Below are positions 3,010 to 41,022 of a stretch of DNA of 45,136 nucleotides, piece after piece. Every line of letters begins with the position of its first letter. The first letter of the stretch is position 1. The notes beneath the pieces were generated by a model, which was not told where the DNA came from, did no database searches, and was given only the letters and a program-made list of their open reading frames with translations. Source of the stretch: an uncultured Desulfatiglans sp. (GTDB taxonomy: Bacteria > Desulfobacterota > DSM-4660 > Desulfatiglandales > Desulfatiglandaceae); assembly GCA_900498135.1 (NCBI GenBank), contig LR026961.1:4455905-4501040 (forward strand), read 5' to 3'. The position numbers and the translations under genes are program-made.

Positions 3010-3410
3010 TCGCTTATGAGTTCATTCTCTTCTGGGCCTGCACCGGTTTTCGAATGGTTTTCACAGATGGAACGAGCATCGATCGAGCGTTTTTTTTCAC
3101 AGCGACGGGCCGGCAAACCTGTCGATCGATGCGTGTCCATCCGGAAATGCGGACTTTTTGCCGCTGTCGAGAGAAGCAGGCGTTTGCACGGAGGCGACCC
3201 ACAGGTCGCCCCACAGGCAACCCTGCAAATGGACCCCGAGATTGGCCGAAAAGACCGTTTCCCGGGGGGAAGCCGATCAGCCTGCCTGAGCGCGTTTCGC
3301 ACCCGGAGATGTTCAACCGTCACATCCCCGGTAAAAACCGCTGCAGGACGACCGTTGCTATAAGGGAGTTTCCAATCATTTGAGTCCTATTTTGATGGGG
3401 AGGTGCGACG
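3010..3410. other. Intergenic region carrying a decayed repeat
   Basis: The 400 bases between the small exported protein and the peptidase hold a degenerate copy of the palindromic repeat (3139-3270). The peptidase has a strong ribosome-binding site, GGGGAGGT, at its 3' edge. Small frames in both directions run through the repeat and are not believable genes. Confidence 0.5.
3139..3270. repeat. Dispersed palindromic repeat, degenerate full-length copy
   Basis: It lies in the opposite orientation to the copy at 1-125. ATCCGGAAATGC and a run of T open it, GGAGGCGACCCACAGGTCGCC replaces the central palindrome with mismatches, and ATTGGCCGAAAAGACCG closes it. The spacing of all blocks is kept although many bases differ, so this is an older copy of the same element. 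Confidence 0.75.
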
Positions 3411-19235: not shown

Positions 19236-19462
19236 GCCGGAAATGAGGATTTTTAGCCAATATCAAGGAAATCAAGCGTTTGCGCGGAGGCGACCTGCAG
19301 GTCGCCGCACAAGCAAACGTGCAGATTGACGCCGAGATTGGCCAAAAAGACCATTTCCGGATGGAAATCAAGCGTTTGCGCGGAGGCGACCTGCAGGTCG
19401 CCGCACAAGCAAACGTGCAGATTGACGCCGAGATTGGCTAAAAAGACCATTTCCGGCCGGGA
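19236..19462. repeat. Palindromic repeat with 96-bp tandem duplication
   Basis: A full copy (about 19236-19361) is followed by a second unit lacking the left arm. The sequence from ATCAAGCG at 19271 repeats from 19367 with a period of 96 bases and is nearly identical. Both units carry the GCGACCTGCAGGTCGC core. Upstream, 19205-19236 also matches bases preceding the copy near 40825, so the mobile unit may be longer than the palindrome. The array fills the gap between glnK and glnD and might reduce transcription or mRNA stability into glnD. Confidence 0.85.
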
Positions 19463-29751: not shown

Positions 29752-29766
29752 TCATTTCCGGATGGA
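29752..29766. repeat. Tip of the palindromic repeat
   Basis: TCATTTCCGGATGGA matches the outermost end of the dispersed element. It lies just upstream of the kinase gene and is too short to be certain. Confidence 0.35.
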
Positions 29767-29929
29767 TCTAGCTAATTATCAGTTATAACATATGCACTGG
29801 TCAATCAAGGAGTTTTACGGGCATCCCCCGTTGCCGTGACGGGGGCGGCGCGGGAGGCTCTTCTGCTGCACCACCAGAAAGATCGCGAGAAAAAATCTTA
29901 GGAAATCAGATACATATTGACCTGGGTGA

Positions 29930-30023: not shown

Positions 30024-32654
30024 TCATTTTCTATTAATATGTGTATCTATGTTATCATTGACATTTTCACTGTCATCTGTTTCTGAATTATCAGAAGGTA
30101 TAGAGAAATATTGATCGGGATCATAATACAAATTATCATCATTGCTGTCCAAATATAACATACTACTCATCTTTAACGTATTATCCATATTTTTCTGTCC
30201 ATCGTTTAATGGATTAATGTTTATCATTTTATTAAGATGCTCAATTCCAGTTATGCCCCTATCGCTATCATCAGAATCTTCCATAAAATTTATCGTATTA
30301 ATATTTCTTTGAATTTTATTTTCTTCCGGCAACCAACCGACTCCTATTTTGCCGTTTGAATCATTAAGTTTATTGAAATATTCGATATCTTCTATACTGA
30401 CATAGCCATCATCAGAATCATTCGAAATACTTGCAGTATCAATGTCTCTGTACTTTTCATCTTTTTCGATTATTTCCCTGTTTGAATTATTAGTATTCAC
30501 TAACTTGCTTTCATCGTATAAAGCCTCGACTTTTACTACAGTCTCCCAACTATAATCAATCCATTCTCTAGATTCCTCTACCTTGAATTTTTTCGGCAAT
30601 GTTTCTTTTTTAAAAACATACCGACTCATCATTTCATCTTTAGCTCCATCTTTTGATATTTTTCCTTCATACAATGAATCAATATATTCATAACATAATC
30701 TAATGATATATGTCATAATATGTCTACGTTCATTAATATTAATTGATGTATGCTGAGTTAACGCTGGCATTGCCAGCCATTTTCTGCATGTGATTTCAAG
30801 GGGAGAATAGGCATTGATAAAGATTTCCAGCGGGGCCGTATCATCTTTTGGTTTGCTATCCTGAATTCTATTTCGCAAACAAATTAGATTGAGATTATGC
30901 GTTTCAAGCAAAAGAGCCAGTCCCCACTTGAAATCTTCCATGAAATTCGACAATTTTTGCATCACGCCATCTTTTTTCATCTGATAGAGTTCATCAATCT
31001 CCGTATGATCGATGATCGTGTCAATGACATCTCTCAGGGTGTCATTGAAAGGAACTGCAGGCCAGATCAGGCCTCTTTCGTTATCTTGGACGCCAACAAG
31101 GCCGAAATCTTCATCCCCATCCCAGGGATCTTGGTCAAAATGAAAATTGGTCAATGGACCATAGGAACCATTAGGCAGGGTTCGGCTGCGATAAGTGTAC
31201 CTCCCGGTCATTCCTATCAGGTTGTAGTTACCATCGAGCGGCGGCTTCTGACGGCTAAAGTATTTCTCCCGGAATTTTTCTCTGGCCTCGCTCAAGGCCT
31301 CCTGTTTGGCCTGCTCCAGCGATTTCGATCCATCCACTTTTGGCTGCTGATCCGGAATGATCGAGGAATCTTGCTGGGCTGGGACCTCACTGTCTAGATT
31401 CTCGAGTTCCAGAGTTTTCCACTCAAGCTCCTTCAAGGGATCTTGCGGGGTCGGGATCTCTTGATTTCGATCTCTGCTTTCCATAGATTTAAGCTCTTTT
31501 TCCTCTTCAGAATCTACCAATTCTGGCTGCTGATCCCGAATGATCGAGGAATCTTGCGGGGTCACGGGCACAACGCTCAGTCCCTCGAGAACCGGCGGGG
31601 GAGAATCAGGCTCGGAGCGCAGCGATGGGGAAGTCCGCCCGTGCGCAACAATCGTATAATGAACGCCTCCGTCCAGATAGCGGTAGGAGTCCATTTCGCT
31701 CCGGTACCTGACGCTGCCGGTTACTTCGAAGCTCGTCGGTATGTCCGGCATCCTGAAGATAAACCGCGTCAAGGATTGCCGCCTCGCTTCGTAAGTTGAC
31801 TCTCCGGCCTGCTGCGCCTGTTCCTCGCCGTCCATCGGGTTCGACCCCAGAAACCGCCGGTATCTTCTCCATATCGTCTCCATCACCTGTCCCCGCGCCC
31901 CTTGGGGGCGCAACAACAACACAGACGGATGGAGCAAAAATTGGTTGAAGAGGGTATCGAGGTCCTGCCGGATCACAGGGTCATCGACTGCCCGGAGCGG
32001 TGCCGCTGCATCCCAGAGCATCTGCCGCTGCCTGAAAAAGGTCATGATATTTTCGCGCATCTCCCCGATGCGCCTGGACTCGGAGAGGTCTTCAGCGGAC
32101 TGCTCGATGATCCCCTCCGCCAGGCGCCTGAGGGTCTGCTCGCCGCCCTGTTGCCAGAATTCCGGCTGGATAATCGTCTCCTTCTTGAGATCCTGCACAA
32201 GGGCGTCGAACGTTCCCGGAAGCGGATCCGCGCCATCCGTCGTCCCGGAGAGGAAAAACCTCTGCTGGAAGGCCTTCTTCTCGCAGCGGATGCGGTCCAC
32301 CACCCTCCGCACACGGCGGCAGGTAAGCGGCCTCTCGCCGAGTTCTCGTTCGGCCCTGCTGCGGTTTTCCGATCCATAGAGAACCTCGATGGAACCGAGG
32401 AGCCTGTCCTTCAGGTAGATGTCTTCGCCCCTCAGTTTCACATCGACCTCCTGCGGCGCCCCTTTGAGATCAGGATGATTCTTCCGTATCGCCCGCGCAC
32501 GCCACTTTCTACCGCTCCCGAAGAGATCCCTGTAATGGACGCCCAACCAGCGCTCGTTTTCCCTTCCCTCCAGACCGATCTCCCCCCACCAGCTCCTGCC
32601 TGCAGCCTCCCGCAGATTATCGACAACACCTATCGCTTCTTTCAATGCGACCAT
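30024..32654 (-). CDS. Large protein of unknown family, paralogue of the 32847-34796 product
   Basis: An 876-residue product with no signal peptide or membrane span. The ATG at 32654 follows GGGGGAGGAG. Near residue 75, LRGEDIYLKDRLLGSIEVLYG and PLTCRRVRRVVDR match the neighbouring gene, as do RFFLSG, PGTFDALVQDL and DTLFNQFLLHPS. A unit of about 190 residues ends with RFIFRMPDIPTSFEV; a second, more divergent unit ends with RYVFKKETLPKKFKV. A linker repeats QDSSII-[RP]-DQQP twice. The last 200 or so residues are rich in Asn, Asp, Ser and Ile, with repeated DSDD...IE...NK blocks. The DNA is AT-rich over 30024-30900 but GC-rich in the N-terminal half. I recognise no domain. Confidence 0.75.
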   Translation of the reverse strand: MVALKEAIGVVDNLREAAGRSWWGEIGLEGRENERWLGVHYRDLFGSGRKWRARAIRKNHPDLKGAPQEVDVKLRGEDIYLKDRLLGSIEVLYGSENRSRAERELGERPLTCRRVRRVVDRIRCEKKAFQQRFFLSGTTDGADPLPGTFDALVQDLKKETIIQPEFWQQGGEQTLRRLAEGIIEQSAEDLSESRRIGEMRENIMTFFRQRQMLWDAAAPLRAVDDPVIRQDLDTLFNQFLLHPSVLLLRPQGARGQVMETIWRRYRRFLGSNPMDGEEQAQQAGESTYEARRQSLTRFIFRMPDIPTSFEVTGSVRYRSEMDSYRYLDGGVHYTIVAHGRTSPSLRSEPDSPPPVLEGLSVVPVTPQDSSIIRDQQPELVDSEEEKELKSMESRDRNQEIPTPQDPLKELEWKTLELENLDSEVPAQQDSSIIPDQQPKVDGSKSLEQAKQEALSEAREKFREKYFSRQKPPLDGNYNLIGMTGRYTYRSRTLPNGSYGPLTNFHFDQDPWDGDEDFGLVGVQDNERGLIWPAVPFNDTLRDVIDTIIDHTEIDELYQMKKDGVMQKLSNFMEDFKWGLALLLETHNLNLICLRNRIQDSKPKDDTAPLEIFINAYSPLEITCRKWLAMPALTQHTSININERRHIMTYIIRLCYEYIDSLYEGKISKDGAKDEMMSRYVFKKETLPKKFKVEESREWIDYSWETVVKVEALYDESKLVNTNNSNREIIEKDEKYRDIDTASISNDSDDGYVSIEDIEYFNKLNDSNGKIGVGWLPEENKIQRNINTINFMEDSDDSDRGITGIEHLNKMININPLNDGQKNMDNTLKMSSMLYLDSNDDNLYYDPDQYFSIPSDNSETDDSENVNDNIDTHINRK

Positions 32655-32756
32655 ACGACTCCTCCCCCTGCCTCGCTCCCAATGCCTCAAGTTTTATCCG
32701 GGAATCGATCCATTTCTCTCTCTGACATCCTCGAAATCGCGTCTACAAAGCGTGTC

Positions 32757-32795
32757 ATCCGGAACCGATTTTTTGCCCATCTCAGCGCCGTCTGT
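32757..32795. repeat. Decayed half copy of the palindromic repeat
   Basis: CATCCGGAACCGATTTTTTG followed by CCCATCTCAGCGCCGTCTG tracks the left half of the element at 1-42 with scattered changes. It lies in the gap between the two paralogous unknown genes. Confidence 0.5.
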
Positions 32796-32846
32796 TTTCA
32801 GAGCGACGTCAGTGAGATCCTGAATGAGCCGTGTTCTCCGCTGCAG

Positions 32847-34796
32847 TCACTGTATCTCCTGTTCCGCGAACAACGGACTTCGCCAGCCCGGGATCTTTCC
32901 CTGCTCGAAGTACATGCGGATATCATCGCCTGAGACCTCGAAGCGTGCGGGCGGCATAGGGCGGTTAAACATAAAACGGATCATGGCTTCCAGATCCACT
33001 CTCCCGGCTCCCGTGGAGGTACGCTCATCGAGAGGAAGGGAAGAAAGTTCTTGAATCTGTCCGCCACCTCGATCGATGGTAGAGGCCCCTTCCCGCCCGC
33101 AAAGCCGGGCCATCCCGCTCATCTCCAGGAGTCTCTGTTCATGTATCCCCCCGATAAACGCAGCGAAACGCCTGCTGACAAAAGCGATCAGCCGGGGGCG
33201 TTCCCGCTGAGGTTCGTGGAAGGCAATCGAGGGATTCACCAGGAGGTTTTCAAACGTAAGCACAAACGGCGCATAGTCCTGCATCGGGACATCACAGGCA
33301 CTGAACGCTCGAACCAGGTGCCTGACCGCCTCGTCCCGCTCCTTCAAAAATGCGCACATCTCGTCGCGGACTATTTTACATCCCTCTCGATATCTCTCGA
33401 TGCCGACCATCCTTTGAACGATACCCTCGGCAAGACCTTTCAGTACGCGCCTGAACTTCTCCTGCTCGCGCCAATAGAATACAGGGCAAAGCCCTTTTTC
33501 GCCAAGTTCGGTGACGAGGGAATCGAAATTCTGCAACGGTGCGAGTCCCGTATCCCATCTATCATTCCGATGAACGGATCGGCTCCCCAGCGCCATGAAA
33601 CGTCTTCTGTGCAATGCAACCTGAAGAGACTCCAATTTGGCCGTCTGGCCGCGATCCCCCGAATTCTGCGCCTGGATGACGAACGGCAATCTGCGCTTCC
33701 GGAAGAAATTCTGCCCGAAAAGACGTCTGATTTCGGCGAGCAGTTCTTCACCCTGCTGCAGGGGCGTCTCATCAGGTTGATCCGTGATAACGGGGACGGA
33801 GCTCTCTCTAAGGCCAATCTGCTCCACTTCCTCGGCAGGCACACGCGGGGCATCACCCAGCGGCGCGTCCAGACCCACCTGAAGGGCCCCTTGAACCAGG
33901 AGCGATTGCAGGGCGGATCGTCTCGCCTCCCCCTGAATCTCCACCGCGTTTTTCTGTGTCAGAAACTCCTTATATCTTTGGAGCGTCGCCTGCATGCATT
34001 CCCAACGTTTTAACGGATCGAGAAGAAGCAGGCTTCTGTCCATCAAGAAGAGACGATCGAAGAGCGTGTGCAGGTCATACAAGACGAGCGAATTCTCCGC
34101 AGCACGCGACCACGGAGCGCACCTGAAAACGGTCTTTCGCTGCGCAAGGAAGGTTTGGAGACCCTCCTTAACATCCCTCCATCGCTCTTCAGAGGTCATT
34201 TTGCGCTTACCGCCGTCGATGATCGATCTGGCCAGGTCTTTGAGAGCTGCCCGCGCCGCTTCCTGCTTCAGACCTGCCGGCGGCAAGGCTTCGGCCTCCA
34301 GATCCGCCATGAGGGCATCGAACGTGCCCCGCATGGGCGGCCCCTCGCCTGACGGGGTCTCCAGAAAAAACCGTGTCCGGAATCCGCGCCTGTCCTCATC
34401 GACCCGCCGCAGCACCTTTCGGATGCGGTGACACGTCAAGGGTTTATCGTCGATGATCCTTTCTGCGCCCTCCAGCGCCTCGGGTCCGTAAAGCGTCCTC
34501 AGCGCATTCCCGAAAAGACATCGAAGATAGACATCCTCCCCTTTCAGTTCAATCGCCGGATCAATCGTATACACCCATGGCTTGCGCGGATCGGTATTGG
34601 GGCGGATCTCGACGAAACGGCTTCTCGACCTGATTTTGTGCGCGGATGACCAGCCACTCCGCCCATACAGGCAGAGATCGCCTGCGTGGTCGAACCCCAG
34701 TTCGCCCCTCCTGGCAGCCGTCTGAGCGAAGACCGACACCGTATAGGAGGATTTCTCAAGATCACTCAATTCCAGGTCCTCCACTGGCACCGGCAC
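32847..34796 (-). CDS. Large protein of unknown family with an internal duplication
   Basis: A 649-residue soluble product. The start is probably GTG at 34796 (GAGGG nine bases upstream); a TTG nine codons in, with GGAGG before it, is an alternative. Residues about 70-290 hold ELKGEDVYLRCLFGNALRTL, PLTCHRIRKVLRR, TRFFLETPSG, RGTFDALMADLEAE and LHTLFDRLFLMDRSLLLLDP. Residues about 385-560 repeat the same plan (RRRFMALGS, FDSLVTELGEK, LKGLAEGIVQRM, LTFENLLVNPSIAF). It ends with IRFMFNRPMPPARFEV. The downstream gene shares this architecture. No catalytic motif, membrane span or signal is visible, and I do not recognise the family. Confidence 0.78.
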   Translation of the reverse strand: MPVPVEDLELSDLEKSSYTVSVFAQTAARRGELGFDHAGDLCLYGRSGWSSAHKIRSRSRFVEIRPNTDPRKPWVYTIDPAIELKGEDVYLRCLFGNALRTLYGPEALEGAERIIDDKPLTCHRIRKVLRRVDEDRRGFRTRFFLETPSGEGPPMRGTFDALMADLEAEALPPAGLKQEAARAALKDLARSIIDGGKRKMTSEERWRDVKEGLQTFLAQRKTVFRCAPWSRAAENSLVLYDLHTLFDRLFLMDRSLLLLDPLKRWECMQATLQRYKEFLTQKNAVEIQGEARRSALQSLLVQGALQVGLDAPLGDAPRVPAEEVEQIGLRESSVPVITDQPDETPLQQGEELLAEIRRLFGQNFFRKRRLPFVIQAQNSGDRGQTAKLESLQVALHRRRFMALGSRSVHRNDRWDTGLAPLQNFDSLVTELGEKGLCPVFYWREQEKFRRVLKGLAEGIVQRMVGIERYREGCKIVRDEMCAFLKERDEAVRHLVRAFSACDVPMQDYAPFVLTFENLLVNPSIAFHEPQRERPRLIAFVSRRFAAFIGGIHEQRLLEMSGMARLCGREGASTIDRGGGQIQELSSLPLDERTSTGAGRVDLEAMIRFMFNRPMPPARFEVSGDDIRMYFEQGKIPGWRSPLFAEQEIQ

Positions 34797-35613
34797 TCGA
34801 CCGTTCCCTCTCTATCCTTGCACCGCAGCAAGCTCCGCCATCTCCTCGCCGCCCGAAGGCCCGCAGGCGTTGCGGCCAAAACCTTCCGCCCGTGCCCGGC
34901 ACCTCGCGCTCGCCTCATTTTCCTCAATGCAATACGATCCTCCCCCAACATACATCCTCGCGGATCATTCCCAAATACACATCCTCGGTGATCATTAGCA
35001 AAAAACGTACCATGCGCGGAGATCCTCACCCGCTGAGCGGCTGGACATCGAGGCTTTGTCCAGCTTCTACCGGATGCCAAACAAATTGGCGGGCGGCGCC
35101 CGCCACGAACAGTTGGCCGCCGGCTCGGCACGTTTATGCCGGGCCTCCGTTTACGAAGAGCACGCATTGCACAAAAACTTGGGTACCCTGGCACGGGATT
35201 GTGCACCGCAGAAATGCACCCCTCCGCATCCATGAAGCAGGCGGCAGCAAACCATCCCCTGGTCCTTGCCACTCCTGGAACGAACCGAAGTTCCCGGCCG
35301 GACCCGGCTCTTATCAGTGCAATCCTCTCTGCGAACATCCCTCCACGCGAAGGCCCTGCCCGGTGGGTGAGCGCCTGCAGCGGCGGTCCGCCCGAATCGA
35401 TGACACGAACACCATCGCGAATCCGCCGGGCCCGCCGAGGACGGGACCAGGGTCCTGCCCTTCGGCGGTCGGCATCCCTGTTAGCCTTGCTGATGATTTC
35501 GGATGCTTTTTAATATAACTTAATTACTATCATTAATTATTTATCTTGCATATCGAAGCAAACTTTGCTAGCCTGTTATGTCAGATCGTTTGCTGAAAGG
35601 ATTGAACCTCAAG
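34797..35613. other. Divergent intergenic region
   Basis: About 815 bases between the unknown minus-strand gene and the plus-strand redox operon. It includes a pair of direct repeats (34952-34996) and an AT-rich stretch at 35505-35560 likely to hold the operon promoter; TTGCAT at 35546 with TAGCCT 17 bases on is a poor candidate. Frames of 125-190 codons cross the middle but look like GC-rich shadows without recognisable features. Confidence 0.45.
34952..34996. repeat. Two 18-bp direct repeats, 27-bp period
   Basis: ACATCCTCGCGGATCATT at 34952-34969 and ACATCCTCGGTGATCATT at 34979-34996 differ at two positions. They lie about 155 bases ahead of the unknown gene's start. A period of 27 bases is not a whole number of helical turns, so binding of one protein on a single face is not assured. 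Confidence 0.55.
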
Positions 35614-40703: not shown

Positions 40704-41022
40704 ACCTCCACGACGGAGCGGCCGATGCTTCACGGACCGCCCGCAGGCGCCCGGTCAACGGAGAATAGGGCCTTTTTGCGCCGCAGCACCCGGAAATGAT
40801 TTCCCGGTAAAACCCGGTTTCCAATCCGGAAATGAGGATTTTTCTTCACCGCTTCGCCGCTCAGTCCCACCGCTACGCGGCGGGTCCCGGTTTGGCCAAT
40901 ATCAAGGAAATCAACCGTTTGCGCGGAGGCGACCTGGAGGTCGCCGCACAAGCAAACGTGCAGATTGACGCCGAGATTGGCCAAAAAGACCATTTCCGGA
41001 TGGAAACCTAAAGAGGCAGCTC
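40704..41022. other. Intergenic region inside the glutamate synthase operon
   Basis: About 320 bases between the FMN subunit and the glutaminase subunit, almost all of it taken up by the long copy of the palindromic repeat (40825-41000). The ribosome-binding site AGAGG lies just after the repeat. No gene is evident. Confidence 0.6.
40825..41000. repeat. Palindromic repeat with an internal insertion
   Basis: It starts TCCGGAAATGAGGATTTTT, is interrupted by some 50 bases, resumes at GGTTTGGCCAATATCAAGG, passes through GGCGACCTGGAGGTCGCC (one change from the usual centre) and ends ATTGGCCAAAAAGACCATTT and CCGGA. The 30 bases before it match those before the array at 19236. It is the longest copy and ends 22 bases before the glutaminase-subunit start. 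Confidence 0.8.

What the first reader, a model, noticed from the sequence alone, without database searches (positions are those of the whole stretch)
30024..34796. Two adjacent paralogous proteins built from a duplicated, unrecognised unit
Both genes share LxGEDxYL, PLTCxRxR, RFFL, GTFDAL and DLxTLF blocks, and each seems to contain two copies of a roughly 190-residue unit ending in R-[FY]-x-F, four residues, P-x-x-F-[EK]-V. Three units end RFMFNRPMPPARFEV, RFIFRMPDIPTSFEV and RYVFKKETLPKKFKV. I know no family with this layout. Duplication inside a gene and of the gene itself implies an active history. They may form a hetero-oligomer, but function is unknown.
Basis: partly seen in the sequence, partly recalled or inferred. 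Interest (0 to 1): 0.65.

Follow-up and report, generated by a model that had tools for sequence, protein, structure and literature searches.

The report
Genus-only pair of orphan helical proteins
Two neighbouring bacterial genes encode related proteins built partly from a repeated, probably helical unit that was found nowhere outside this genus; one of the two is already broken in the sister species, so this is a real, fast-changing private gene family of unknown job, and probably not an obligate partner pair.

Summary
The observation mostly holds. Gene A (30024-32690, -) and gene B (32847-34796, -) are clear paralogues (32% identity over 283 aa, E 3e-34). B contains a second copy of the unit (HMM E 1.7e-7). 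A's second copy is too diverged for a profile search; it is supported by the tail motif (0 of 20,000 shuffles) and weak local profile similarity (2 to 4 of 1,000 shuffles). No relative was found in Pfam, NCBIfam, PHROGs, PADLOC, PDB sequences, phages, plasmids, viral contigs, two pattern scans of species genomes, or several hundred genomes of the phylum, except in the one other held species of the genus. There A is intact at the same place (70% identity), but B is a relic left by two deletions. So homologues do not always occur as a pair, which argues against an obligate hetero-oligomer. A evolves fast (dN/dS about 0.5; neighbours 0.1-0.17) yet keeps its frame. AlphaFold gives a helical unit of moderate confidence without a fold match. 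The genus also encodes an Ysc-type injectisome, whose secretin is found in only these 2 of 85 genomes of the class; a secreted effector is an open, untested reading. Verdict: a genus-restricted, rapidly evolving orphan paralogue pair.

The parts
30024..32690 (-). Gene A, 888 aa from TTG (876 aa from the ATG at 32654, which the sister species' gene supports)
   Evidence: Open frame; intact orthologue at the same place in the sister species, 70% identity
31722..32585 (-). A, first unit (aa 36-323) including tail RFIFRMPDIPTSFEV (31722-31766)
   Evidence: E 3e-34 to B; AlphaFold helical model, mean pLDDT 68
31296..31701 (-). A, acidic linker with a 45-bp direct repeat (31334-31378 and 31517-31561, 91% alike)
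   Evidence: net charge -16 over aa 331-455
30579..31295 (-). A, probable diverged second unit (about aa 466-704) with tail RYVFKKETLPKKFKV (30579-30623)
   Evidence: Tail motif 0/20,000 shuffles; local profile 2-4/1,000 shuffles; not found by HMM or hhalign
30024..30560 (-). A, AT-rich acidic C-terminal tail (aa 711-888), much shorter in the sister species
   Evidence: GC 29-32%, third-position GC 0.27, net charge -24
32847..34796 (-). Gene B, 649 aa from GTG
   Evidence: Open frame; paralogue of A; only a relic in the sister species
33927..34706 (-). B, first unit (aa 31-290), without the tail
32934..33749 (-). B, second unit (about aa 350-621) with tail RFMFNRPMPPARFEV (32934-32978)
   Evidence: HMM E 1.7e-7, hhalign 93%
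33502..33643 (-). The stretch of B that survives in the sister species (79% identical, L003 206-347)

Best explanation
A and B are a tandem pair of genus-specific (orphan) soluble proteins. They most likely arose by duplication of a gene that already held two copies of a mostly helical unit of about 250-290 residues. A is the copy kept under weak purifying selection; B is a redundant or conditionally useful copy that can be lost. These steps rest on sequence evidence. Inferred, not shown: the units are helical protein-binding modules, so that A works as a cytosolic two-domain adaptor or scaffold whose acidic linker and tail tolerate fast change. Its role would be accessory rather than core, because it is confined to one genus.
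For: Paralogy and internal copy; tail motif. Found only in two species of one genus. A intact in both at the same place, B a relic in one. dN/dS of A 0.51 against 0.10-0.17 for HK, Fe-ADH, DegT and GlnD; third-position excess 116/131/173 and frame kept over 720 aligned codons. Helical model, pLDDT 80-92 over most of residues 130-250 of the unit. No match to families of enzymes. No obvious signal peptide on reading the N-termini (by eye, no predictor run).
Against: The binding role has no direct evidence. The model is moderate, its first 60 residues are unreliable, and a whole-B model failed. A's second unit is not found by profile methods. Only two species are available, so selection estimates are rough.
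Confidence: 0.45

Rival explanations
1. A and B are substrates (effectors) of the genus's own Ysc-type type III secretion system, delivered into other cells. This would explain lack of relatives, fast evolution, odd composition and easy loss of B.
For: Injectisome genes SctC, D, J, K, L, N, O, P, Q, R, T, U, V, SctW-like and YscX in G000; secretin above the cut-off only in the two genomes of the class that have A, 2 of 85. Fast evolution and AT-rich 3' part.
Against: Both species are one genus, so the co-occurrence is a single event and any genus-specific gene would show it. The genes lie about 1.8 Mb from the cluster, between housekeeping genes. No effector domain, and no secretion signal was tested.
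Confidence: 0.22
2. The pair is a remnant of a mobile element or phage, or foreign DNA, on its way to loss.
For: AT-rich 3' part (GC 29-32% in a 60% region); B decayed in the sister species; dS in the second half of A higher than in neighbours (0.7 against 0.16-0.30).
Against: No match in phages, plasmids, viral contigs or PHROGs; no integrase or tRNA at the site; A keeps a frame and some constraint.
Confidence: 0.18
3. A and B form an obligate hetero-oligomer.
For: Adjacent, same strand, paralogous, 156 bp apart.
Against: The sister species keeps A without a working B.
Confidence: 0.07

Closest known systems
Taxonomically restricted (orphan) tandem paralogues of bacteria in general
   Same: Confined to one genus, fast evolving, one copy decaying, no domain assigned
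   Different: Unusually long (649 and 888 aa) with an internal repeat and a steep fall of GC along gene A
DUF2582 (PF10771), winged helix-turn-helix
   Same: 34 residues of A's tail (aa 761-794) give E 0.002
   Different: 18.6 bits, under the cut-off of 24.2; lies in the acidic AT-rich tail, outside the units; read as chance
Type III secretion effectors
   Same: Lineage-restricted, fast-evolving, in a genome with an Ysc-type system
   Different: No sequence match to any known effector, not linked to the secretion cluster, no secretion data

Membership tests
Type III secretion effector | Genome encodes a non-flagellar type III secretion system | tested here: met
   Sct genes in G000 and secretin in both species
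Type III secretion effector | Secretion through that system | not testable with these tools
   Needs an experiment
Type III secretion effector | Sequence relation to known effector domains | tested here: not met
   No Pfam or NCBIfam family above cut-off. New effectors often lack such a match, so this weighs little
DUF2582 (PF10771) | Score above the curated cut-off | tested here: not met
   18.6 against 24.2 bits
Known anti-phage defence protein | Match to a PADLOC model | tested here: not met
   No family up to E 1
Phage or plasmid protein | Relatives in phage, plasmid or viral collections | tested here: not met
Known solved fold | Fold match well above background | tested here: inconclusive
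   Best Foldseek E 0.3, best VIA Z 5.1 to a designed helical repeat; moderate model

The most novel reading that the evidence does not exclude
A and B found a new family of type III effectors made of a private duplicated helical unit, delivered by this bacterium into unknown target cells.
Probability: 0.15. Interest if true: 0.6.

Novelty: new member of a known kind. Interest (0 to 1): 0.32.

Why it matters
The unit is a protein family without a relative in the collections searched, so a structure could show a new fold. The pair is also a clear case of gene and domain duplication followed by loss of one copy between sister species. If it proved to be an injectisome substrate, it would give a first handle on what the type III system of this genus does. 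As it stands it is one of many orphan families.

Tried and rejected
Obligate A-B partnership: weakened by the B relic in the sister species. DUF2582: below cut-off and outside the units. PDB sequence hits to dihydrofolate reductase at E 0.19 and above: read as chance. Fold matches (P450 at E 0.3, TBC1D7, IE1, designed helical repeats): unrelated to each other and at the background for helical models. Whole-B model: unusable, pLDDT 32. Pattern scans of species genomes and viral contigs: no candidate confirmed; such scans need an exact peptide pattern, can miss distant relatives, and may leave out near relatives of the window's genome. One alignment failed through a frame slip of mine; scripts failed on a file not yet present, a missing module and the time limit, and were rerun. 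Synteny of the site in other genera was started with the histidine kinase and not pursued. Literature on type III secretion in this group gave only general hits.

Full report
Observation. The window holds two long same-strand ORFs, A (30024-32690, 888 aa) and B (32847-34796, 649 aa). After splitting both proteins, B's second half matches A's first half (blastp E 6e-10) and B's first half (E 6e-5). An HMM of the first units finds B's second half at 28 bits, E 1.7e-7, where the best of 1,000 shuffles has 5.1 bits; hhalign gives 93% probability. A's second half is not found that way (-0.6 bits; hhalign under 1%). Weaker support remains: the local profile alignment is reached by only 2 of 1,000 shuffles against the first-unit profile and 4 of 1,000 against B's second unit, and the tail motif stands at A 690, where 0 of 20,000 shuffles had it. 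In six frames of the window even a looser form of the motif occurs only at the three quoted places, and the sister species has loose forms at both equivalent places of A. The motif was defined after seeing these copies, so its figure is optimistic. The internal duplication is thus shown in B and probable in A. B's first unit has no tail.

Distribution. In whole-genome searches the family occurs only in the window's genome G000 and in the one other held species of its genus, G001: 2 of 148 relatives, 2 of 85 in the class, 2 of 394 drawn from the phylum. Neither genome has further copies. Pfam, NCBIfam, PHROGs, PADLOC and PDB sequence searches gave nothing above threshold. Phage, plasmid and viral collections and two pattern scans of species genomes gave nothing confirmed. 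Metagenomes could not be scanned.

History. In G001 the neighbourhood on the A side is the same: histidine kinase, iron alcohol dehydrogenase, DegT aminotransferase and GlnD genes follow in order. A is intact (729 aa, 70% identity; 85% in the first unit, 59% in the second, 40% in the aligned tail). B is a relic: two deletions, with short shared sequence at the joints, removed its start, its first unit and most of the second, leaving about 142 bp and the last few codons. The G001 contig ends just upstream of this, and the other flank of the site lies at the end of another contig. So the two genes are not always found as a working pair. Over the whole of A, dN is 0.19 and dS 0.37; four neighbours have dN/dS of 0.10 to 0.17. 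Differences by codon position are 116, 131 and 173, a third-position excess, so A is still constrained, though weakly. Base composition is odd: GC falls from about 62% at the 5' end of A to about 29-32% at its 3' end, third-position GC falls from 0.75 to 0.27, and the sister gene shows the same fall. dS rises along the gene from 0.17 to 0.7 and more. I have no tested explanation for that gradient.

Structure. AlphaFold2 on A's first unit, with the other three units as its alignment, gave mean pLDDT 68 and pTM 0.56: unreliable strands in the first 60 residues, then helices, with pLDDT 80-92 over most of residues 130-250. Foldseek and VIA-align found no convincing match among solved or viral structures. 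A whole-B model failed. The fold is therefore open, and a weak match does not show that it is new.

Function. What is shown is an orphan, still constrained, fast-evolving gene with a dispensable paralogue. That the product is a cytosolic helical binding or scaffold protein is inference from helical content, acidic linkers and the lack of enzyme matches. A specific rival came from the rest of the genome. An Ysc-type injectisome is encoded at about 2.64-2.67 Mb, and its secretin is above threshold in exactly the two genomes of the class that carry A. Both come from one genus, so this is a single co-occurrence and weak evidence; A and B lie about 1.8 Mb away. I rate the effector reading at about 0.2. 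A type VI sheath gene is present too.

Verdict. The feature is real and was well spotted. The pair is confirmed, the internal repeat is confirmed in one gene and probable in the other, and the hetero-oligomer idea is weakened. The family is new to the libraries searched but of a common kind, orphan paralogues. Interest stays moderate to low until a structure, a partner or a secretion result exists.

Noticed in passing
window 40871-41007; related copies at about 1-132, 3141-3270, 19257-19456 and (partial) 29753-29832: An interspersed palindromic repeat of about 137 bp with TTTGGCCAAT...ATTGGCCAAA-like ends. About 45 matches were scored in this genome and 43 in the sister species out of some 400 first-look candidates each, mostly 93-98% identical; several contigs of the sister genome end in it. 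It folds better than all 200 shuffles (z -4.1).
   Followed up: partly
L031 (G000:C1:2655000-2674999) and L033 (G000:C1:2640000-2655200): A near-complete Ysc-type type III secretion cluster (SctC, D, J, K, L, N, O, P, Q, R, T, U, V, a YopN/TyeA-like protein, YscX) with several unassigned ORFs beside a TPR protein. Its secretin is above threshold in only 2 of 85 genomes of the class, both of this genus.
   Followed up: partly
window 30024-31300: GC falls to about 29% inside gene A while the surroundings are at 60%; synonymous divergence from the sister species is several times higher in this part than in the 5' part. Unexplained.
   Followed up: partly
G000:C1:614663-615562 and 644623-645405: Two matches to the type VI sheath family VipB about 30 kb apart, one clear and one diverged, also present in the sister species.
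   Followed up: no
window 34848-34961: A stretch upstream of B that stays 93% identical in the sister species although B itself is deleted there; possibly a regulatory region.
   Followed up: no
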